Below, one piece after another: positions 6,335 through 31,046 of a DNA stretch of 64,000 nucleotides. Numbering within the stretch: the first letter of the stretch is position 1; each line of letters opens with the position of its first letter. The position numbers and the translations under genes are program-made. Source of the DNA: Thiocapsa marina 5811 (GTDB taxonomy: Bacteria > Pseudomonadota > Gammaproteobacteria > Chromatiales > Chromatiaceae); assembly GCF_000223985.1 (NCBI RefSeq), contig NZ_AFWV01000002.1, positions 382,501 through 446,500 of the forward strand, read 5' to 3'. The notes beneath the pieces were generated by a model that made no database searches, was not told where the DNA came from, and saw only the letters and a program-made list of their open reading frames with translations.

Positions 6335-6984
6335 GATCGCGTTCTCCGCTGCGCAGAAACCACCGGACGTCGTCCTACGCCAGCGCCCGCGATCCCGCTT
6401 ACGCGTTCGGTGGCGTCGCTTTGGTGGACCTGGTCGGCGGGTGGAATGCCTAAGTCTCGCAGTATCCGGTCAGGGTCTCGGGTTGTCGATTCGGGATGGC
6501 ATCCTTTGCGGCTTACGCTCTTCTGCACTCCCTTGAATGGGTAGATTGCCGGGGCGCGGACCGCCCGGTGATCGACACTGGTCATGATGGTCAAGCAGAC
6601 CGGGGCGGTGTCGGGTAGATCCTGTTTGTTGCTGACCAATCCTCCGCGTTGCGTGACTGAATTGGACGCATTGCGGCCCGACGCATTCAGCCCCGTTTGC
6701 GACTCTGCACGGCCAGAACGGGTTACGAGATCGAACCGAACGTTCGTCATGCCGCACAAACACAAAAAGCCCTCGCCGATCGGTACCGCATGATGGCCTA
6801 CTTCGAACTTTTCCAAGGCGGCGTCGAGGGCCAAGCGTCCGTCGGCTCGACGGCTGCGCACGTGGGCATTCATTACAACACCGTTTTCTGCATCCTCGCG
6901 CTTAGCCAACGCTCGCGTGTGACCGAGTTCAGCCAGGCATTAAAACGCATCGCCGTTCGGCTCAAGAATGCGGCTGATCTTGTG
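6335..6984. other. 650-bp stretch without a recognisable gene
   Basis: Open frames on both strands cross this stretch, but their translations show no domain, no ribosome-binding site and mutual overlap. I see no RNA gene or repeat. It separates the high-GC GNAT gene from the AT-richer accessory module and probably contains the module's left boundary. Confidence 0.4.
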
Positions 6985-7698
6985 CTAGAGCGCCCCCTGG
7001 AGCAGCGCCAGTATCATTGCCCGAATCTCTTTTCTATCCGTTGTATTAAACCACTCCCGCGCCCTTCCTACCTTTCCGTATCTCCGCGAGACTCTCGCGA
7101 GAATCCTATCCTCCACGGACTTGAGGCTCTCTTTGTTTACCTCGGCGATAGGCCAGAACTCTACTTCGCCGTCGAAGGTACCGACATACGACCGTTTACG
7201 TGCCTCAAAGCAATCACGCGCGATTCCTATTTTTGTGTGCTGGTCGTTGACTTTCGTTTTGTATCCGGCATAAATCGGCTTAAGTTCTGCTGACGTTGGG
7301 AACGCCAAATATACCCCCGGTCTCCCCCATCGGCAATCTGCGCTAAACTCTCGTTTTTTTTCCTTATTCGAGGCAAATATCGGCTTGCGTTCGTGTCTGG
7401 TTTCTAGGTCTACTGTATGGCTTTCGCCTCTACTCTCTGTCCTCGCGCCTAGCGCAGCTAACACAGATACTATTCTCTCAGATCTCCACTCCGGGTTGCC
7501 TTTTGAATCCGAGGATGTTCTTGCAATAATGTGTTCAACCTCCCGCAAGGCACCCGTGGCGCTGATGTAGTTCTCTTTTACATAAAGACTACCAGCACCC
7601 GTTTCTCCGACCATGCGCACATAACCGGAGGTCCTAGCGGCCACGTGATAGCCGGCGCGCTCTAGCGCCAAAGCAATAGTCTTCTTCGTCGTTGCCAT
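6985..7698 (-). CDS. Protein with GIY-YIG/T5orf172-like C-terminal domain, third gene of a low-GC module
   Basis: A 237-residue protein. The C-terminal half (about residues 125-230) resembles the GIY-YIG-like T5orf172/MUG113 nuclease domains: GVYLAF as the GIY strand, HTKIGIA as the KIGI motif, arginines after it, then a downstream Glu and REWFNTTDR near the end. The N-terminal half is not recognised. I start at the ATG at 7698 because GAGGGG sits six bases before it. An earlier ATG at 7725 would overlap the upstream stop but lacks that site. It is the last gene of a three-gene operon. GC content is well below the genome background. A nuclease role is inferred, and some T5orf172 domains are not proven catalytic. 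Confidence 0.55.
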   Translation of the reverse strand: MATTKKTIALALERAGYHVAARTSGYVRMVGETGAGSLYVKENYISATGALREVEHIIARTSSDSKGNPEWRSERIVSVLAALGARTESRGESHTVDLETRHERKPIFASNKEKKREFSADCRWGRPGVYLAFPTSAELKPIYAGYKTKVNDQHTKIGIARDCFEARKRSYVGTFDGEVEFWPIAEVNKESLKSVEDRILARVSRRYGKVGRAREWFNTTDRKEIRAMILALLQGAL

Positions 7699-7708
7699 AT
7701 TGCGCCCC

Positions 7709-9163
7709 TCAAACATTATGTTCATCTAAAGCGTTACCCCAATCGGCGATATACTTCATGCCCATATCCAACTTTCGATATCGCTTCAGCAATGGATGCT
7801 CTTCGATAAACAAGGCTGTTCGCTCAAGCTCTGAAATCACCTCGGGTACGGCCCTGCTGTCAGAGACCCATAGAATCTCCTCCAGCCTCTCCAGAATTGT
7901 CTTCCCTCCCAGTAGCGTCTGCCTCACAAAGCTCTCGGAGATCACGGCTTCGGCCTCCGCTACAACGAGCTCACCGTTCGCACCGGCACCGCCATAGTTT
8001 CCTACAATCACCGGAATCAGGTTGGTGACCCTCCCACCTTCGGACTGCCAGGACGGATACAGGCACAGCCATACAGCATGCTCACACACGACTTCCCCCT
8101 GATTCCGCCCCCAATCAGGCTGAAGACCGACCTCTTTAAAATACGCCATCATATGCTGCTGATTTATCGAAATATACTCTTCCTCTGGAAGATCGTTGAT
8201 CATGAGTCGCTCATTGTCCCATGAAATCCGTTGCACTGACGGATCGCCAACAAATCCCGCCAGGCGTTCACGATTGGATTGCTGAATGGTGTTTGCATGT
8301 TTGTGCTGGCTGAGCGTCGCCCCAAACAATCCTTTCACATCCCCATTCTGGATATCTTTCTCGGATATGGCCCAGTCAGAATCAAAGTTGGCATAAACAC
8401 CCAAGAGCAAATGCGGTATGTAGCGTACAAAGTGATGTAGCGACGTATCCTCGACCATCAGGTCTTCATTCCAAACCCCGATATCGTCTTCGCTAATTCG
8501 CCAGTAATTAAATTGAAACGGATCTTTCTCTCCATTCTCCGCGCGAAAACACGTTCCATTGGGCCAGCACGCAAACGGTTCCTCTTGGGAAAGCATGCGC
8601 TTTCTTGCGGACAATTTTGAGAAACGCTCTGAGAGCTCGAACTTAGTGTCGATTTTGTCTGTAATCTCGTAGAGCGTGTGGATGATCTGTTGCAGGCCAT
8701 CTTGATTTAGGCTGTTAACAGGATGGATGGATGTTCCGGTAGCGACGCGATGGGCGAGTATGTCTGGATCCATTTTCGTGACCTCGGCAATACCTAAGAT
8801 AACGGGCTGATATTTTCGAATGTCCGCGCGCAATCTGTCTGCGCGAACGATTCCTTCATCAGAAGGAATCACTAAGCGATAGAGTTCTTGCGGCGTTATT
8901 CCTGCATCCTTGCAAGTTTTTGTTTTGGATAGAGCTTTTCGGTCCACCTTTAGTCTTTCCATTTGAAGCCCAATATTACGGGCTAATCTCTCTCGATCTC
9001 TTACCGTAACTTTGTTAACGTTCCGCGCTTGCGCCGGGCTCTTCCTCTTGCCAATTTCGAGTATGTGTCGGCCATAGCGTTTTAGCCTTTCCCTTTCCTC
9101 CCGCTTTTCGTCGCGTTCATCTTGAGAAGAAGAAAGTGCTTCGCTCTTATTGCTCTCGCTCAT
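7709..9163 (-). CDS. Large protein of unknown function, second gene of a low-GC module
   Basis: A 484-residue soluble protein I do not recognise. The first 50 residues are highly charged (Glu/Lys/Arg-rich), likely a helix. Residues about 60-150 look like a helix-turn-helix region (RLARNIGLQMERLKVD, then DAGITPQELYRLVIPSDEG). The rest is mixed alpha/beta with conserved-looking aromatic patches such as FACWPNGTCF and FQFNYWRISEDDIGVW. The start overlaps the previous stop as ATGA with AGAGGA eight bases upstream, so translation is coupled. No transmembrane segment or nucleotide-binding loop is visible. The context is a short, low-GC operon with a putative nuclease, which suggests a mobile or defence role, but that is inference only. 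Confidence 0.6.
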   Translation of the reverse strand: MSESNKSEALSSSQDERDEKREERERLKRYGRHILEIGKRKSPAQARNVNKVTVRDRERLARNIGLQMERLKVDRKALSKTKTCKDAGITPQELYRLVIPSDEGIVRADRLRADIRKYQPVILGIAEVTKMDPDILAHRVATGTSIHPVNSLNQDGLQQIIHTLYEITDKIDTKFELSERFSKLSARKRMLSQEEPFACWPNGTCFRAENGEKDPFQFNYWRISEDDIGVWNEDLMVEDTSLHHFVRYIPHLLLGVYANFDSDWAISEKDIQNGDVKGLFGATLSQHKHANTIQQSNRERLAGFVGDPSVQRISWDNERLMINDLPEEEYISINQQHMMAYFKEVGLQPDWGRNQGEVVCEHAVWLCLYPSWQSEGGRVTNLIPVIVGNYGGAGANGELVVAEAEAVISESFVRQTLLGGKTILERLEEILWVSDSRAVPEVISELERTALFIEEHPLLKRYRKLDMGMKYIADWGNALDEHNV

Positions 9164-9543
9164 GCAGCATTCCTCTTTAGGTCATTCCAATAGGCTTTAA
9201 GGTTACGTCGACCGCCCTTATCTCGGCCGGTGGCTTGACGTCGCCAAGTTTTATTGGAACGAAAGATGGTTACAAGTTTGCCTGTCTGTTCAATGACAAC
9301 TGCACCGAGAAGCCGCTCAGCACGGGGACGTCCGATGGATGATTCAAGCATCTCGGGCAGATCCTCACGGGTGACCAGATAGCCGTCCGCGACCGGCGTT
9401 CCATACAGGCAGACCAGTGCAATATCACTGTTCGTGAAACCTCGTTGGCGGCTTCGCTCCTCACAGTGCCTTGTCAGGCCTGTCAAGGAACTGTCATAAA
9501 TTTCGTTTCCCACCATCTCCTTAGCCTCTTCTGGCCTGACCAC
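9160..9543 (-). CDS. Small DUF4258-like protein, first gene of a low-GC module
   Basis: A 127-residue protein resembling the DUF4258 family. HCEERSRQRGF is followed by a helix and GTPVADG, then LLGAVVIEQTGKLVTIF, giving the alpha-beta arrangement of RelE-like small proteins. The end is very basic (NKTWRRQATGRDKGGRRNLK), compatible with RNA or DNA binding. The start is uncertain: GTG at 9543, or ATG at 9516 inside AAGGAGATGG. The gene overlaps the next one by four bases (ATGA). Some DUF4258 proteins are toxin-like, but I see no antitoxin partner in the usual small size range. The two following genes are the only partners. Confidence 0.55.
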   Translation of the reverse strand: MVRPEEAKEMVGNEIYDSSLTGLTRHCEERSRQRGFTNSDIALVCLYGTPVADGYLVTREDLPEMLESSIGRPRAERLLGAVVIEQTGKLVTIFRSNKTWRRQATGRDKGGRRNLKAYWNDLKRNAA

Positions 9544-10824
9544 AGCTAAGATGCTAGCAGGGTATTTACTAGAAAAAATAACTATCTACTGCATCTCCAG
9601 GTATCTTTTTCGGAACGTTTCCGGGAAGGATCTGGGAAAAAACAGGGAATATTTTGAGAAGTTCTTTGGATTGGCGAAAGGGACTAGTCTTGGCGTTGCC
9701 CATGCCGGCGGCTCTTGACGTGGCTCCGTGGCCAATCGAGCCATCCCAAGTAGTGTGCATAAAGGAAAATACAATAGGTATCAGAGACCTAGGTTCAGCG
9801 GCGGCGCAGGCATAGTGAAGTTGGCCAGCCCCCGATGCTTAGTTCGATGAGCGAGAGCGGGCGGGTTCCGACTAGCGGAGACGGGTCGAGCGTGTCGCAC
9901 GCTAGCAAGGCATCGCGGCGATTTCGCTCTTGTTCGCTCTGGGTCGTAAGCACGCGCCTGCCTGGACTCCGGGTCGTGGGTGACCGCAACGCGCGTCGAG
10001 CGGTCACCTATGTCGGCCTGAGCGAATGACGTCCCTCGATCAAACCATTTCTCTCGAAAGCCACCCTTTTTGAGACGGAGTTAGGTCGTGGCGCCCGATC
10101 TCACCGCGGGCTACCGACGGTTTCGATCTTGAGGCGCTTGCCGGCGATGGCCGCCGGTTCAGGGTGCCGATCTGCACCTTGTCGTCAACCGACCCCAACG
10201 GCGGAAACCCTCGAGAACAACGATGACGAGCAGCTGTAGTATCCCCGGCGAGTTGTTCGCCGAGTTCCAGACCTCTTTCTACGCCGATCCTGTGGAGGCG
10301 GTGTTTAAGGCGTTGAGGATGGGGTATAGGGTAGGGGTGCGGGATACCGTTCGCCACAACCGAAGACAGTCCGACGCCTACGCCGTTCGTCAGATCCATG
10401 CCGCCACCGGACAGCGTTTGGACAACCAAGCGCTTGTTGGAATCGCCGGATTGCTGCTTTGCACCAAACAGCGACTTCCGCCACTCTCTGTCCAGACCTA
10501 TCCGGCTTGCGCTTGCCCAAGCGGTTACGGTTTGGCATAAAATCCGAGACATCCACAGAAGCTGGGGATAAGTCTGTGGATGAACCGAAGCTGCACTCTC
10601 TAGCGCAAGGATTTGTGACGATTCTGCTCGATTGGTTGAATTTTGACCGACCGACTTTTTTTGGTAATACAATTACATACGGGATATTAGCGTTTACTGA
10701 ATAATCCCGCGCCTGGTCCAGGGTTTCGGGGCAATGTCAAGCCGCTGCTGTGCAATGCGGCTTGCTCTGCGTCGGTCAAGCGATCGGGCCGGCGTTCGCG
10801 ATCCTTTTCAACGGAGAAGACACC
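9544..10824. other. 1.3-kb stretch without an intact gene
   Basis: No frame here has recognisable protein similarity plus a plausible start. At 10552-10583 there is an inverted repeat (TCCACAG ... CTGTGGA) around GGGGATAAG. The GC content changes from low (9544-9790) to high. I take it as eroded sequence between the accessory module and rsgA. Confidence 0.4.
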
Positions 10825-14305: not shown

Positions 14306-14931
14306 TCAGCCCGGATCCTTGAGCACGTCTTCCAGCGTCCCGCACTCCAAAACGCGATCGGCCCAAACCTCGAGCTCCGCTTCGCCCGCCTGCTCGAGGC
14401 GTGCCTCGGCCCAGGTTGGCAGTGCTCCGAAGCGCCGAATCAAAACCGGCGCAGCAGCTTTGCCTGTCCCCGGGACAATCCTTCCTTGATACCTTCCTTG
14501 ATACCTTCCTTGATACCTTGCTCCAGTCCCTGTTGTTTCCATTCTTCGGTCCAGGTCTTCACCCGTTCGGCCAACATGGCGCGCATCTCCTGAAGAGTGT
14601 TGACGTTCGGTAGCTCGGCGCCCGGTACTCGAGCCGGCAGCAGCACGCGTTTGAGCCAGACGACAAAGGCACGGCGCAGACTGCCCTGCTCGGGTGCGGC
14701 GAGCCAATCAATCAGACTCGCCAGAACCCGCTCGATATCCTCGGGCCGGCGACTGTTCTCGAGCCGGAACAAGGCCGCGGCGGCATTGCGCTGTCCCGCC
14801 AGCTCGGTATCCGCAAGCCGCTGCTCGTCCAGCAGCAAATCCCAATCCTCGTGCACGAAGTCTCGGATCAAGTCCGCGACCAGATCGCGATGCGAGAACA
14901 GGAGCTTGTAGGAAGGATCGTGTTCAGCCAT
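14306..14931 (-). pseudogene. Rpn/PD-(D/E)XK (transposase_31, DUF4351) gene, copy 1, internally deleted and frameshifted
   Basis: The start MAEHDPSYKLLFSHRDLVAD and the C-terminal FGALPTWAEARLEQAGEAEL are typical of Rpn recombination-promoting nucleases, which are normally about 300 residues. Here FVHEDW is joined directly to LLLDEQRLADTEL, removing about 100 residues that include the nuclease core. The frame then breaks near 14440-14460: the first frame ends KLLRRF, and the DUF4351 tail continues in another frame to 14306. A 12-base tandem repeat encodes the GIKE units. A second copy lies at 20345-20891. Confidence 0.75.
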
Positions 14932-20344: not shown

Positions 20345-20891
20345 AGGAGATCCGTTAGATTGGTTCCTTGACGACCGCTTCCAGGGTCGTGCCGTCCAGG
20401 ACGCGATCGGCCTAGACCTCGAGCTCCGCTTCGCCCGCCTGCTCGAGGCGTGCCTCGGCCCAGGTTGGCAGTGCTCCGAAGCGCCGAATCAAAACCGGCG
20501 CAGCAGCTTTGCCTGTCCCCGGGACAATCCTTCCTTGATACCTTCCTTGATACCTTGCTCCAGTCCCTGTTGTTTCCACTCCTCGGTCCAGGTCTTCACC
20601 CGTTCGGCCAACATGGCGCGCATCTCCTGAAGAGTGTTGACGTTCGGTAGCTCGGCGCCCGGTACTCGAGCCGGCAGCAGCACGCGTTTGAGCCAGACGA
20701 CGAAGGCACGGCGCAGACTGTCGCCGGAACAAGGCCGCGGCGACATTGCGCTGTCCCACCAGCTCGGTATCGGCAAGCCGCTGCTCGTCCAGCAGCAAAT
20801 CCCAATCCTCGTGCACGAAGCCTCGGATCAAGTCCGCGACCAGATCGCGATGCGAGAACAGGAGCTTGTAGGGCGGATCGTGTTCAGCCAT
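20345..20891 (-). pseudogene. Rpn/PD-(D/E)XK gene, copy 2, more degraded
   Basis: It starts MAEHDPPYKLLFSHRDLVAD and carries the same internal deletion as copy 1 (FVHEDW joined to LLLDEQRL). It also lacks 77 bases after NVAAALFR, which shifts the frame. In the DUF4351 tail a TAG replaces the Trp of LEVWADRV seen in copy 1. Past that stop the tail continues as ADRVLDGTTLEAVVKEPI to a natural stop near 20356, different from copy 1. The left ends thus differ by more than point changes, suggesting recombination between Rpn paralogues. Confidence 0.75.
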
Positions 20892-26635: not shown

Positions 26636-28090
26636 ATGAAACGCAAGGCTCGATGGTCACGCAGCGTCCGTCTAGGGTTGGTCGCTGCCCTCAGCACGAT
26701 GCGCAGACGCCTCGACCAGGTCGGCTGTTGCTCTTGTCTGAGAGCCGAGCGAAACGCCCAGCACCTCCCTGCGCACCGTTACTGTGCGGCAGACGCCCTG
26801 TTGTCACCAAGGCTGACAGTCGCGCCACTGGCTGTGCTCTCGTTCTTTATGTGCTGGCAACCTGCCTTCGCGGAGAACGCAGAGCAGGGCGCCTCCCGCA
26901 CCGGGGCGCCGGTGCAAAATGCTTTTGACCTTGACCCTTTCAGCGGCCCTCGAGCGGTGTCCACGATCCTGCGCGATGATCGCGAGGAGAAGGCGGATCT
27001 TCTCAATCTCAATGTCCTCAAAGCGTGGGAAGGATGGAAGGCCGGTATCGCCGAGAGCACAGGGCTCAGCTTCGGCGGCGATTACTTCGCAGTGGGTTTC
27101 GCCGCGACCGACAGCCTCGGCGACGACACATCGGCCTCTGGGGTCGCGCGCTTCTTTGGCTCCTGGGCGTTGCTGAACCGCGGCGCGGCGAACACCGGCA
27201 GCCTTGAGTTCAAGATCGAAAACCGGCACGCCTACACCGACATCCCGCCGTCTGCCTTCGGCGTCGAAGTCGGGTTTGTCGGTACGCCAGAACCCGTCTT
27301 CAACAACGACGGCTTTCGCGCGACCACTTTCTATTGGAAGCAGGACTTCGCCGACGACCGCGCTGTCTTGCGTGTCGGCTTTCTGGATATGAAGGAATAT
27401 TTTGATGGTTACGCGTTGGCTAGTCCTTGGACCGGCTTTCTCAATCTCGCCTTTACGGTCGGCTCAAACACGATGATCGTGTTGCCGGACGCCGCGCTTG
27501 GCGCGATGTTCGGCGGCTATCTGACCGACAACATTTATGCGGCAGCCAGCATCATGGACGCCGGTTACCAGCCGACAAACATGTTCGACGGCTTCGATAC
27601 CTTCTTCGGTGACTTCAACACCTTCAAGACCGCGGAGATCGGGATCACCGGAGGTGGCAAGCGATTTTTGTTCGACAATGCGCATATCGCGGTCTGGCAG
27701 ACCGATGAGAGTGACGTTAGCGGCGTGCAGAGCGGATGGGGCGTCAATGTCTCTGTCTCCCGTGTTGTGGCCGACCACTGGTTGCCGTTCTTGCGTGCCG
27801 CTTGGGCCCATGAAGGCGGGGGCCTTTACGAAAGGTCGGTGAGCGGCGGTTTTGGATACCAGAACAAGCCCGGCGGCAACCAGCTCGGCGTCGGCCTCAA
27901 CTGGGGCCGCCCTAATTCGGATACGTTTGGGGTCGACCTCAACGACCAGTGGATAAGCGAGGTCTACTACAGGGTCCAGCTTACCGAGAACATTCAGATC
28001 ACGCCCAACCTGCAAATCGTTGTGAATCCGGCTTTGAACCCCGCAGATGCTCTCGCCTTGTTCGGATTGCGAGCCCGAGTGACGTTCTGA
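26636..28090 (+). CDS. OprB-like carbohydrate porin
   Basis: The frame ends in a typical outer-membrane barrel with a C-terminal Phe (FGLRARVTF). OprB-family segments are visible: WEGWKAGIAESTGLSFGGDY, FYWKQDFADDRAVLRVGFLD and LNLAFTVGSNTM. The signal peptide appears to be LTVAPLAVLSFFMCWQPAFA, ending near base 26870. The start is unclear. ATGs at 26636 and 26699 would put 40-60 unusual residues before the signal, and a TTG at 26801 would start right at it. None has a good ribosome-binding site. The 5' end may have been replaced. Substrate specificity cannot be read. Confidence 0.7.
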   Translation: MKRKARWSRSVRLGLVAALSTMRRRLDQVGCCSCLRAERNAQHLPAHRYCAADALLSPRLTVAPLAVLSFFMCWQPAFAENAEQGASRTGAPVQNAFDLDPFSGPRAVSTILRDDREEKADLLNLNVLKAWEGWKAGIAESTGLSFGGDYFAVGFAATDSLGDDTSASGVARFFGSWALLNRGAANTGSLEFKIENRHAYTDIPPSAFGVEVGFVGTPEPVFNNDGFRATTFYWKQDFADDRAVLRVGFLDMKEYFDGYALASPWTGFLNLAFTVGSNTMIVLPDAALGAMFGGYLTDNIYAAASIMDAGYQPTNMFDGFDTFFGDFNTFKTAEIGITGGGKRFLFDNAHIAVWQTDESDVSGVQSGWGVNVSVSRVVADHWLPFLRAAWAHEGGGLYERSVSGGFGYQNKPGGNQLGVGLNWGRPNSDTFGVDLNDQWISEVYYRVQLTENIQITPNLQIVVNPALNPADALALFGLRARVTF

Positions 28091-28379
28091 TCCCGACAGG
28101 GGCACGGATGCGCTCAAATTCTCCCAGGGGCCGAGTGATGGCGACGCGTGAGACGGGTCACCGCCGTGGCGATTCAGACCTGCGCGAAGTGGGCCGACCG
28201 TCGCTATCTCAACATGGTCTCGCTTGAGCAAAAGGAGCCGAAGGCCGCCGCTTAGCATGCAACCCGCACAAGAGGCTTTCCGTCAAACTACATACACATA
28301 GGTCGGGACTTAACCCCCGGTGAAAGCTGATTTACTGTCGGCGGCGAAAGTTAATTAAACTAAAAAATAGGAAAACAAC

Positions 28380-28841
28380 ATGAACAAAATCGTACCTAAA
28401 GATGAACTCGTCAATTTTGTAGGGACGAAGGTTGAACCAACCGGATGGTATGAAGTTACGCAGGAACGCATCAACATGTTTGCCGAGTGCACAGGCGATA
28501 ACTACTTTATGCATGTTGATGTCGAAAAAGCGAAAAAAACTGATTTGGGTGGAACCATTGCTCACGGCTTGTTGACGCTGTCGTTGACACCTTATCTGAT
28601 GGATAACTTTCCAGTACCTGAGAATATGCCACATGGTCTGAACTATGGGTATGATAAGGTTCGTTTCCTGGCCCCGGTACGCACAGGTAAGCGGGTACGC
28701 ATGCACGGCGAGGTTCTGGATGTCCATTGGAAGGATGAGCACAACTGCAAGTTCAAGGTTGGTGTGACCGTTGAAATTGAAGGTGAGGAAAAGCCAGCAC
28801 TGTACGCCGAATGGATACTTTACTACGAAACCGAAGCCTAA
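28380..28841 (+). CDS. MaoC-like (R)-specific enoyl-CoA hydratase
   Basis: A 153-residue hot-dog protein. The catalytic hydratase-2 motif is present: FAECTGDNYFMHVD supplies the Asp and His, and GGTIAHGLLTLSL follows. KVRFLAPVRTGKRVR is the usual beta segment. Such enzymes hydrate trans-2-enoyl-CoA to the (R)-3-hydroxy form, or act on related acyl-CoAs. AGGAAAA precedes the ATG. It is the first gene of an AT-rich acyl-CoA cluster. Base composition is clearly below the genome background, a sign of transfer. Confidence 0.82.
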   Translation: MNKIVPKDELVNFVGTKVEPTGWYEVTQERINMFAECTGDNYFMHVDVEKAKKTDLGGTIAHGLLTLSLTPYLMDNFPVPENMPHGLNYGYDKVRFLAPVRTGKRVRMHGEVLDVHWKDEHNCKFKVGVTVEIEGEEKPALYAEWILYYETEA

Positions 28842-28861
28842 GATTACCGCCGAATCTGTTC

Positions 28862-28886
28862 GCTCACCCGATACTATAGGGTGAGC
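28862..28886 (+). promoter_or_regulatory. Stem-loop between the MaoC and CoA-transferase genes
   Basis: A perfect 8-bp stem GCTCACCC / GGGTGAGC with a 9-base loop lies in the 80-base spacer, upstream of the AAGGAG site of the CoA-transferase. It may be an mRNA processing or stability element; there is no T-run for termination. Confidence 0.45.
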
Positions 28887-28921
28887 AAGCCATCATCTAA
28901 CCATCTTCTAAGGAGATGACC

Positions 28922-30085
28922 ATGACAGATACTACAAACCTTCCGTTAGACGGAATTCGCGTTATAGATTTCACGCAGGCCGAGCAGGGCCCCATCGCCA
29001 CTCTACAGCTCGCTGATTTTGGTGCCGATGTCATCAAGATCGAGCGCCCGGGCGTGGGTGACCTGAGTCGGCATACTGTTGGTGGGACTTCTATAGAGGC
29101 GACGAACAATCCGACGTATGTAGCCATGAACCGCAACAAGCGTTCGATGGAACTTGATACGAAAAGCGAAGCCGGAAAACAGGTTATTTATGAGCTCGTT
29201 AAAGTGTCGGATGTGGTCGTAAACAATTTTCGCCCTGGTGTGATGGATAAGCTCGGCTTCAGCTATGAGAAGCTTAAAGAGATTAATCCACGCATTGTTT
29301 TTGCGTCCGCAACCGGCTACGGACCTGTCGGGCCATATGCCAAAAGACCTGGGCAGGACATGGTGGCCCAAGCTGTAACGGGCTTTATGTATGAGACCGC
29401 GGACCCGTCAGTTCCACAATCGATAGTTCCAACAGCTATCTGCGATTATACCGGCGGAATGCATCTCTGTCAGGGCATTATGGCCGCGTTGATTGGACGG
29501 GAAAAAACCGGTCTTGGTCGAAAAGTGGATGTGTGTCTTTATGATTCGATGATTCATACGCAACTGCAGGAAGTGGCCTACTGGAGCAAATACAAACAGG
29601 TTCTGAACTGGGCGGCAATGCCACTCGCTATTCACTCCGAGGCCAAGGATGGACCAATTGTGGTGATTGGTGCGTTTATGCCTAACCCATTAAAGGCTAT
29701 GTGCGCTGCAATGGAAATAGATGATCTTACCATACCCTACCCAGACATGGCTTCTCAGATTAAAAACAAAAAGATTATACAGGACACACTGCGCAAGGAA
29801 ATTGCCAAATACACTATGGAGGAAGCTTTGGCACGTTTTGAAGGGCAGGATGTACTTTGTTCCCCGGTCCGCAAATTAAGTGAAGTAATGGATGACCCAC
29901 AAACGAAGATTAACAATATGATAATAGATTTAGATCACCCGATTCTTGGCAAAATTAAGACCCTCGGTTGCCCCGTTCATATCAGTGACGCCCCTGTTAC
30001 TGTGAGAATAATGCCGCCACAGCTCGGTGAGCACACCGAAGAGATCCTTCGCGAACTTGGTTTGGCCGCGGGTGACGGTAAGTAA
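28922..30085 (+). CDS. Class III CoA-transferase (CaiB/BaiF family)
   Basis: A 387-residue protein. The start has GVRVIDFTQAEQGPIATL-like family sequence, with GADVIKIERPGVGDLSR and YVAMNRNKRSMELD after it. The catalytic aspartate is expected in AICDYTGGMHL, as in formyl-CoA transferase. These enzymes move CoA between carboxylic acids. I start at the ATG at 28922, seven bases after AAGGAG; the ATG at 28916 abuts that site. It sits between a MaoC hydratase and two crotonases, so it probably activates the pathway acid from an acyl-CoA donor. The specific substrate is unknown. Codon use is AT-richer than the genome. Confidence 0.85.
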   Translation: MTDTTNLPLDGIRVIDFTQAEQGPIATLQLADFGADVIKIERPGVGDLSRHTVGGTSIEATNNPTYVAMNRNKRSMELDTKSEAGKQVIYELVKVSDVVVNNFRPGVMDKLGFSYEKLKEINPRIVFASATGYGPVGPYAKRPGQDMVAQAVTGFMYETADPSVPQSIVPTAICDYTGGMHLCQGIMAALIGREKTGLGRKVDVCLYDSMIHTQLQEVAYWSKYKQVLNWAAMPLAIHSEAKDGPIVVIGAFMPNPLKAMCAAMEIDDLTIPYPDMASQIKNKKIIQDTLRKEIAKYTMEEALARFEGQDVLCSPVRKLSEVMDDPQTKINNMIIDLDHPILGKIKTLGCPVHISDAPVTVRIMPPQLGEHTEEILRELGLAAGDGK

Positions 30086-30173
30086 GAGCGCCGGATGAGT
30101 GTCTTGTTTGGCGCAAGTGACGGCGTACTCGGGTTACGATTGATCATCCAGCGAAGATGAATGCAATTGATAA

Positions 30174-30197
30174 CTCCAGCCGCAGACGCGGCTGGAG
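30174..30197 (+). promoter_or_regulatory. Strong stem-loop upstream of the first crotonase
   Basis: CTCCAGCCGC-AGAC-GCGGCTGGAG forms a 10-bp stem with a 4-base loop, about 60 bases before the crotonase ATG. No T-run follows. It may limit read-through or separate expression levels within the cluster. Confidence 0.5.
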
Positions 30198-30257
30198 GAA
30201 ATCCGGGATCAGATTAAGCCAGCAGAAACGCAAACACTAAAAGAGAGCGATGAAGAC

Positions 30258-31046
30258 ATGACTACTACTTATGAAACGATCAATACATTTGAAAAAGACA
30301 GCATTTTCTATTTAGAAGTAAACAGGCCCGACAAGCTGAATGCTTTGAACAAAACGGTTTTAGATGAGATGTTGGATGCGATAAATAATATCGATGTTTC
30401 AAAATATAAAGGCGTTATTCTAACAAGTGTTGGAGAAAAAGCTTTTATGGCAGGTGCGGATATAGCTGCCATGTCTGAAATGACTCCGCAAGAAACCCAA
30501 GTCTTTGCCGAAACAGGACAGGCCGTCACCTTGGCCATGGAAGATCTGGCCCTGCCTATGATTGCCTGTGTTCATGGCTTTGCACTTGGCGGTGGATGTG
30601 AAATGGCAATGTCTTGCGATTTCATTTTTGCTTCGAAGCAAGCAGTTTTTGGACAGCCTGAGGTTAAATGGGGTGTGTTACCTGCTTTTGGTGGAACCCA
30701 AAGACTTCCGAAGTACATTGGTCGAAACCGAGCAAAAGAGCTGATCTATTCGGGCACTTTTATAGATGTTGATAAAGCCTATGAGTGGGGATTGGTGAAT
30801 AAAGTAACAGATGACAAAGCAAGCTGCCTGGAAGCAGCAGTTGAGTGTTTGAAAGTTATTGGAAGAAATGGCCCACTTGCCGTCGCAAGCGCAAAACAGG
30901 TCATGAATGCCGGAAATGACATGTCAAATAGAGATGGCATCCACCAGGAAGCATCAGTCTTTGGCGTAGTTGCCAACTCCAATGACAAGGCGGAAGGAAC
31001 CAAGGCATTTGTAGAGAAAAGACACCCGGTCTTCACAAGAAGCTGA
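30258..31046 (+). CDS. Enoyl-CoA hydratase (crotonase)
   Basis: A 262-residue crotonase. The oxyanion-hole segments are AFMAGADI and HGFALGGGCEMAMSCD. Both catalytic glutamates of true hydratases are present: one in GGGCEM, the other in FGQPEVKWGV. The reaction is addition of water to 2-enoyl-CoA giving the (S)-3-hydroxy product. It is the most AT-rich gene of the window and differs strongly from the second crotonase 40 bases downstream, so the two have different origins rather than arising by a recent duplication. Confidence 0.87.
   Translation: MTTTYETINTFEKDSIFYLEVNRPDKLNALNKTVLDEMLDAINNIDVSKYKGVILTSVGEKAFMAGADIAAMSEMTPQETQVFAETGQAVTLAMEDLALPMIACVHGFALGGGCEMAMSCDFIFASKQAVFGQPEVKWGVLPAFGGTQRLPKYIGRNRAKELIYSGTFIDVDKAYEWGLVNKVTDDKASCLEAAVECLKVIGRNGPLAVASAKQVMNAGNDMSNRDGIHQEASVFGVVANSNDKAEGTKAFVEKRHPVFTRS

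What the first reader, a model, noticed from the sequence alone, without database searches (positions are those of the whole stretch)
6985..9543. Low-GC three-gene operon of unknown function with a putative GIY-YIG-type nuclease
Three genes overlap or nearly touch (ATGA overlap, then a 10-base gap). They encode a DUF4258-like small basic protein, a 484-residue protein I cannot assign that has a helix-turn-helix-like part, and a protein with a T5orf172/GIY-YIG-like domain. The base composition is clearly below the high-GC background, and both flanks are eroded former mobile DNA. A compact, transferred unit with a nuclease and a large unknown protein is what an undescribed defence or mobile-element maintenance system would look like. 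The function is inference.
Basis: partly seen in the sequence, partly recalled or inferred. Interest (0 to 1): 0.72.

Follow-up and report, generated by a model that had tools for sequence, protein, structure and literature searches.

The report
Toxin-like pair with swappable DNA-acting gene
A bacterium has picked up a three-gene cassette in which two tightly coupled genes, perhaps a toxin-like protein and its controller, sit with a probable DNA-cutting enzyme, and in other bacteria related pairs have different genes in the third position, often DNA-acting ones, as one might expect of a modular defence system.

Summary
The operon is real: A (127 aa, DUF4258-like), B (484 aa, no confident match in four libraries), C (T5orf172 GIY-YIG), with the stated overlaps and low GC. 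None of ten congeners has B; one (G109) has both flanks at separate places. B has two detected relatives (Thiohalocapsa, Sedimenticola). Both sit beside A, but each has a different third gene, by motif HNH-like and PD-(D/E)XK-like. The recurring unit is A plus a coupled partner: 12 of 15 core A loci have an open adjacent partner, from four families without BLAST similarity. Third genes vary: GIY-YIG, SeqA-C-like, uracil-DNA glycosylase, others. DUF4258 is listed in print as a RelE/ParE (BECR) toxin family. Best reading: a toxin-antitoxin-like A-B pair coupled to an exchangeable, often DNA-acting gene, probably defence. Against it: no significant fold match for A; a helix-turn-helix is above cut-off in only one partner family; three core A genes lack an intact B; 13 of 18 weaker A loci have no such partner; no activity is shown; the exact trio occurs in one genome. 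Defence is inference. New variant of a known kind.

The parts
9160..9543 (-). gene A, DUF4258-like small basic protein (127 aa; start uncertain, GTG 9543 or ATG 9516)
   Evidence: relatives annotated as DUF4258 domain-containing
7709..9163 (-). gene B (partner family B1), 484 aa, no confident library match; overlaps A by ATGA
8729..9010 (-). helical, HTH-like region of B (residues about 52-145)
   Evidence: AlphaFold2, moderate confidence there; whole model mean pLDDT 44
6985..7698 (-). gene C, 237 aa (246 aa from ATG 7725), GIY-YIG nuclease candidate
7012..7275 (-). T5orf172 (GIY-YIG) domain of C
   Evidence: residues 151-238 of the 246-aa form, above the Pfam cut-off
6630..10757 (.). approximate foreign block carrying the operon; its flanks match congener G109 at separate places

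Best explanation
A horizontally acquired three-gene cassette. A is a small DUF4258-like protein, probably a BECR-fold (RelE/ParE-type) toxin. B is its translationally coupled, antitoxin-like controller. C is an exchangeable partner, here a GIY-YIG endonuclease. In the mechanism I think most likely, B represses the operon and holds A in check; invasion by phage or plasmid DNA disturbs B; C then cuts the invading DNA, and A, if freed, stops growth as a back-up. Shown here: the operon, the recurring A-plus-partner pair, and the change of both partner family and third gene between loci. Inferred: toxicity of A, DNA binding and antitoxin role of B, cleavage by C, the trigger, and defence.
For: 12 of 15 core A loci have an open, adjacent, same-strand partner: B1 in 3, B2 in 2, B3 in 6, B4 in 1, four families with no mutual BLAST match at E 0.01 (13 of the 15 were rows of the A profile, the 'core' label is mine, and B4 is known from its own locus only). 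A 4-nt overlap is seen in 5 of 12 by longest frames and in 8 of 12 with inner starts in L004, L044 and L047. Coupling and exchange of partners are typical of type II toxin-antitoxin modules (established knowledge). DUF4258 is listed among BECR-fold toxin families, activity unknown, with DUF4258-MqsA fusions (PMC11980606, passages); as a toxin in P. syringae TA modules (PMC8790059, passage); and as a CdiA toxin domain, 'tRNase (?)' (PMC11630599, passage). The first PDB match of the A model is the MqsR-MqsA entry 3hi2, with colicin E5 and HigB entries in the 50 rows shown (which chain is the toxin was not checked). Helix-turn-helix: B3 above the Pfam cut-off, B4 below it (E 0.0034). Third genes: T5orf172 in the window, GIY-YIG by annotation in L010, SeqA C-terminal-like in 6 of 6 of L041-L046, UDG in L082.
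Against: No fold match of A is significant (PDB best E 1.7, TM 0.36/0.46; BFVD best E 0.18), and A is below the DUF4258 cut-off. Three core A genes lack an intact B: L046 (B3 matched at residues 188-336 only), L079 and L011 (none), awkward if A is a toxin that needs B. Of 18 weaker A loci, 13 match no partner. Ruegeria L014 has B2 and GIY-YIG-like pieces without A. No HTH family was found in B1 or B2. PMC11980606 gives the order antitoxin first; B is first in 9 of 12 core loci, but A is first in the window, L004 and L008. PMC8790059 ascribes DNA breaks to DUF4258, PMC11630599 suggests a tRNase: the activity is unsettled. Of 17 A-plus-B loci the third gene is unassigned in 2, an integron-cassette-type protein with no DNA role known to me in 1 (L047), and absent or truncated in 3. 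HNH-like and PD-(D/E)XK-like are motifs read by eye; no library confirmed them.
Confidence: 0.42

Rival explanations
1. A restriction-like (type IV or control-protein-like) system: C and its substitutes attack or read foreign or modified DNA, B is a regulator or targeting subunit, and A is a non-toxic accessory subunit. No toxin-antitoxin action is involved.
For: The third gene is DNA-acting by library model, similarity or annotation in 8 of 17 A-plus-B loci (2 above a cut-off, 5 SeqA-like below it or by similarity to such a protein, 1 by annotation). Ensifer L009 has a methyl-directed restriction enzyme about 1.7 kb downstream (mREase_II, E 6.5e-163). GIY-YIG is a known type IV nuclease domain (CMoRE, PMC12923530, abstract and outline). 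A without an intact B is tolerated in 3 core loci.
Against: DUF4258 is a described toxin family. The pairing of A with coupled partners looks like a TA module. L047's third gene is not DNA-acting by Pfam.
Confidence: 0.28
2. An addiction or maintenance module of mobile elements: A-B stabilises a plasmid or integrative element and C is passenger cargo.
For: Relatives lie on plasmids and among what I read as conjugation genes in Sedimenticola L005. IS-type genes flank or interrupt L012, L013 and L079. The third gene of L047 is an integron-cassette-type protein.
Against: C is close to the pair in the window (10 nt), L041 and L008 (overlapping), and a SeqA-like C is kept in 6 of 6 of L041-L046, though these are close relatives. 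I recognised no mobile-element gene beside the window operon.
Confidence: 0.2
3. A chance cluster: acquired genes without a joint function.
For: The exact trio is found in one genome. B1 is rare: 3 of 210 genomes of the order, own included; the own genome only in 369 of the class and 398 of the phylum.
Against: A and B stay open and adjacent in two other genera, with B at 38-42 and about 20 percent identity; overlapping frames and short gaps; the domain of C is above the Pfam cut-off.
Confidence: 0.1

Closest known systems
DUF4258 (PF14076) toxins of type II toxin-antitoxin modules (PMC11980606, passages only)
   Same: A is like this family and is coupled to a partner gene
   Different: Partners here are 271-484 aa and a third gene is often close by; window A is below the Pfam cut-off; published activity is unknown
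ptuXYZ tripartite locus (PMC11980606, passages only)
   Same: Three-gene putative defence operon joining a BECR-type domain with a nuclease-like protein
   Different: ptuXYZ has a DUF262 protein, a PtuA-like ATPase and a PIN-BECR fusion; no ATPase was found here, and the third gene changes between loci
CMoRE GIY-YIG type IV restriction enzyme (PMC12923530, abstract and outline only)
   Same: GIY-YIG catalytic domain
   Different: CMoRE is a single gene with the GIY-YIG domain at the N-terminus; in window C the domain is C-terminal, of T5orf172 type, and comes with A and B
T5orf172 domain proteins (PF10544)
   Same: Domain of C, above the Pfam cut-off
   Different: About 140 N-terminal residues of C are unassigned; operon with A and B

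Membership tests
T5orf172 / GIY-YIG nuclease | Match to the family model above its curated cut-off | tested here: met
   PF10544 21.5 bits vs 20, residues 151-238
T5orf172 / GIY-YIG nuclease | Catalytic motif residues (GIY/YIG elements, Arg, Glu) | tested here: inconclusive
   By eye GVY, KIG, Arg and Glu are present in C and similarly in L010 C; the motif is recalled, no profile alignment was printed; no PDB relative by sequence at E 1
DUF4258 (PF14076) | Match above the Pfam cut-off | tested here: not met
   15.1 vs 25 bits in window A; 21.0 and 18.2 bits in relatives L002 and L041. The records label relatives L008 and L011 DUF4258. Hence 'DUF4258-like'
BECR fold (RelE/ParE superfamily) | Fold similarity to MqsR, RelE, colicin E5 or HigB | tested here: inconclusive
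   Best PDB match 3hi2 (MqsR-MqsA), E 1.7, TM 0.36/0.46; colicin E5 and HigB entries among the 50 rows shown of 77; none at E <= 0.001; model mean pLDDT 62.8
Type II toxin-antitoxin module | Coupled pair of toxin-like gene and DNA-binding partner | tested here: inconclusive
   Coupled partner in 12 of 15 core loci; HTH above cut-off only in B3, below it in B4, none found in B1 and B2; three core loci lack an intact partner
Type II toxin-antitoxin module | Toxicity of A relieved by B | not testable with these tools
   needs expression tests
Known anti-phage systems (PADLOC-DB 2023) | Match to a catalogued defence protein | tested here: not met
   A, B, C: no family. Of 10 proteins from related loci two matched: the L009 restriction enzyme and the HTH part of L041 B3
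Restriction-modification system | Methyltransferase partner in the operon | tested here: not met
   No methylase among A, B, C by Pfam, PHROGs, PADLOC or NCBIfam; a partner elsewhere in the genome was not sought

The most novel reading that the evidence does not exclude
A new modular defence class: a DUF4258-like protein and one of several unrelated partner proteins form a common control core onto which different DNA-acting enzymes or readers (GIY-YIG, HNH-like, PD-(D/E)XK-like, SeqA-like, uracil-DNA glycosylase) are plugged, so that one core serves many ways of attacking or reading foreign DNA.
Probability: 0.3. Interest if true: 0.72.

Novelty: new variant of a known kind. Interest (0 to 1): 0.5.

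Why it matters
If the reading holds, one control core has been combined with several kinds of DNA-acting protein. That would give DUF4258, a family listed as a toxin with unsettled activity, a biological setting, and would offer a search handle (the A profile) for putative defence cassettes whose A, B and C proteins match nothing in the defence catalogue searched here. It is directly testable with one small operon.

Tried and rejected
Same trio elsewhere: not found by B searches in the order (210 genomes), class (369), phylum (398), genome contigs (58 pattern matches, 2 relatives; only two short patterns were used), plasmids, phages or viral contigs. Metagenomes could not be scanned. C was searched as a query only on plasmids (no match). 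Virus origin: A and B2 scans of viral contigs and A in phages were negative. Structure of B: poor (mean pLDDT 44); no significant Foldseek hit. I first took B3 of L044 for broken because of my own gene caller; tblastn and translation showed it open. UDG for L089 and L090: Pfam gives none and hhalign to L082 is weak; counted as motif-only for L089. Promoter and terminator scans were at chance level; no operator-like repeat stood out. Weaker DUF4258 genes in sigma54-activator operons (L050, L052-L054, my reading) were treated as another subfamily and kept out of the core count. Of the 26 matches I looked at the neighbourhoods of 17; nine weak ones were left (L028, L030, L032, L033, L036-L040). 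Of the plasmid A hits I looked at one record per organism and strain and not at the twin records of Rhizobium and Ensifer.

Full report
The observation. A (9160-9543) and B (7709-9163) share ATGA; C starts at 7698, ten bases after B ends, or at 7725 inside B. The operon has GC 0.507 against a window mean of 0.628; 5 of 123 windows of its size are as low or lower. A second low-GC block lies at 27-31 kb, and two genes there have the same low GC3 as the operon, so low GC alone is not special.

Libraries. C has a T5orf172 domain just above Pfam's cut-off; A matches DUF4258 below the cut-off; B has no match in Pfam, NCBIfam or PADLOC and only a chance-level one in PHROGs (E 0.45). Searches of solved structures by sequence gave nothing convincing for C, B or A (best E none, 0.43 and 0.07).

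Transfer. The genome has one copy of B. A B profile found 3 of 210 genomes of the order, own included; of the 11 genomes of the genus only the window's own has B. Congener G109 matches the right flank from 10757 to about 14100 at 94-96 percent, and the left flank, up to about 6630, at other places. A and B are absent from G109 by profile; C was not sought there. The operon thus lies in a block of about 4.1 kb at a junction that is arranged differently in G109. I identified no transposase beside it.

Relatives of B. Two were found: Thiohalocapsa marina (38-42 percent, L002/L004) and Sedimenticola hydrogenitrophicus (about 20 percent, L003/L005). Both have A beside B. In Thiohalocapsa the next gene is a 154-aa protein with an HNH-like motif; in Sedimenticola a 373-aa protein with a PD-(D/E)XK-like motif, among what I read as conjugation genes. 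Both motif assignments are mine by eye; no library matched, and neither protein had a plasmid relative.

Relatives of A. Searches with A and its profiles led to other partners. I call the partners B1 (window type), B2 (about 330-400 aa; Rhizobium, Azospirillum, Skermanella, Roseomonas and others), B3 (about 315-350 aa; Ensifer and an unnamed group in the window's family) and B4 (271 aa, L047 only). They show no similarity to each other by BLAST at E 0.01. A helix-turn-helix is above Pfam's cut-off in B3, below it in B4, suggested by a model in B1, and not found in B2. Of 15 core A loci 12 have an open adjacent partner on the same strand: B1 in 3, B2 in 2, B3 in 6, B4 in 1; B comes first in 9 and A first in 3. 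L046 has a B3 match at residues 188-336 only; L079 and L011 have none. The core is my choice of the strongest A matches, 13 of the 15 being rows of the profile itself. Three of the 15 came through B; of the 12 found through A, 9 have an open partner. Of 18 weaker A loci examined, 5 are next to a B2 (L012, L013, L082, L084, L089) and 13 match none of the partner queries. Three stretches of that script had no A (L014, L092, L093), so it could not report a partner there; they had been fetched for their B2 matches.

Third genes. In the 17 loci with A and an open B, the next gene is DNA-acting by model, similarity or annotation in 8: T5orf172 in the window and UDG in L082, both above cut-off; GIY-YIG in L010 by the record's annotation alone (Pfam, PADLOC and NCBIfam gave none); and SeqA C-terminal-like in L041-L045, of which L041 and L045 match Pfam below the cut-off and the others match L041. 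It is motif-only in 3 (L004, L005, L089), unassigned in 2 (L008, L009), an integron-cassette-type protein in L047, and missing or truncated in 3 (L012, L013, L084). L041-L046 are close relatives and count as about one event. Ruegeria L014 has B2 next to two short reading frames that look like pieces of a GIY-YIG gene, without A.

Setting. The five plasmid loci with A and a partner sit near restriction-modification methylases and TcmP (Rhizobium), a methyl-directed restriction enzyme (Ensifer), a cysteine desulfurase and a DUF4007 gene (Azospirillum; their link to DNA phosphorothioation is recalled), and RES-Xre and PIN-AbrB toxin-antitoxin pairs. No control rate was computed, and the chromosomal loci were not checked in this way.

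What A may be. Held papers list DUF4258 as a BECR-fold toxin family of unknown activity, usually with the antitoxin first; as a CDI toxin domain marked 'tRNase (?)'; as a toxin in P. syringae, there tied to DNA breaks; and in E. coli with partners strictly downstream (PMC10790755). I saw passages only. The A model (mean pLDDT 62.8) matches the MqsR-MqsA entry first and has colicin E5 and HigB entries among the 50 rows shown, but none of 77 matches is significant, nor any in the viral library. I treat the fold as likely, not shown.

Mechanism. I think A-B is a toxin-antitoxin-like core and C the exchangeable arm, at 0.42. The restriction-like rival (0.28) is close, because A persists without an intact B in some loci and many third genes are enzymes or readers of DNA. 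Defence itself is inference throughout.

Novelty. Searches of the held open-access library for DUF4258 (8 papers), PF14076 (8 papers, two of them relevant), T5orf172 with defense (13 papers) and two wider term sets (63 papers, 20 listed; 3 papers) showed no description of this cassette in the listings. I read passages of five papers (PMC11980606, PMC10790755, PMC8790059, PMC11630599, PMC10688885) and the abstract and outline of PMC12923530; four of the eight DUF4258 papers were not opened. Most subscription papers and bioRxiv preprints are not covered.

Noticed in passing
L052, L053, L054 (and in part L050): A different DUF4258 subfamily sits after a sigma54-type activator and before von Willebrand-like, phosphatase-like and kinase-like genes in three genomes; L050 shows the activator and a phosphatase-like gene (read by eye).
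   Followed up: no
L094 3614-4354, L095 2729-4228, L097 3785-4249: The C-terminal part of partner B2 recurs under annotations ASCH domain protein, exonuclease domain protein and helix-turn-helix regulator; 45 of the 62 plasmid records matched are Escherichia. A portable domain of unknown role.
   Followed up: partly
L041-L046: A small SeqA C-terminal-like gene overlaps the end of the DUF4258-like gene in these six stretches of related genomes; by analogy with SeqA it may read hemimethylated DNA.
   Followed up: partly
window 27000-31000: A second low-GC block (down to 0.473) with MaoC-like and CoA-transferase-like genes (names by eye).
   Followed up: no
window 14440-14931 and 20412-20891: Two reading frames with nearly the same first 50 residues, in a stretch that is present twice in the window and matched in congener stretch L063.
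   Followed up: no
L092 3500-6535: A B2 gene without A lies next to a DUF262 domain gene on a Roseomonas plasmid.
   Followed up: no
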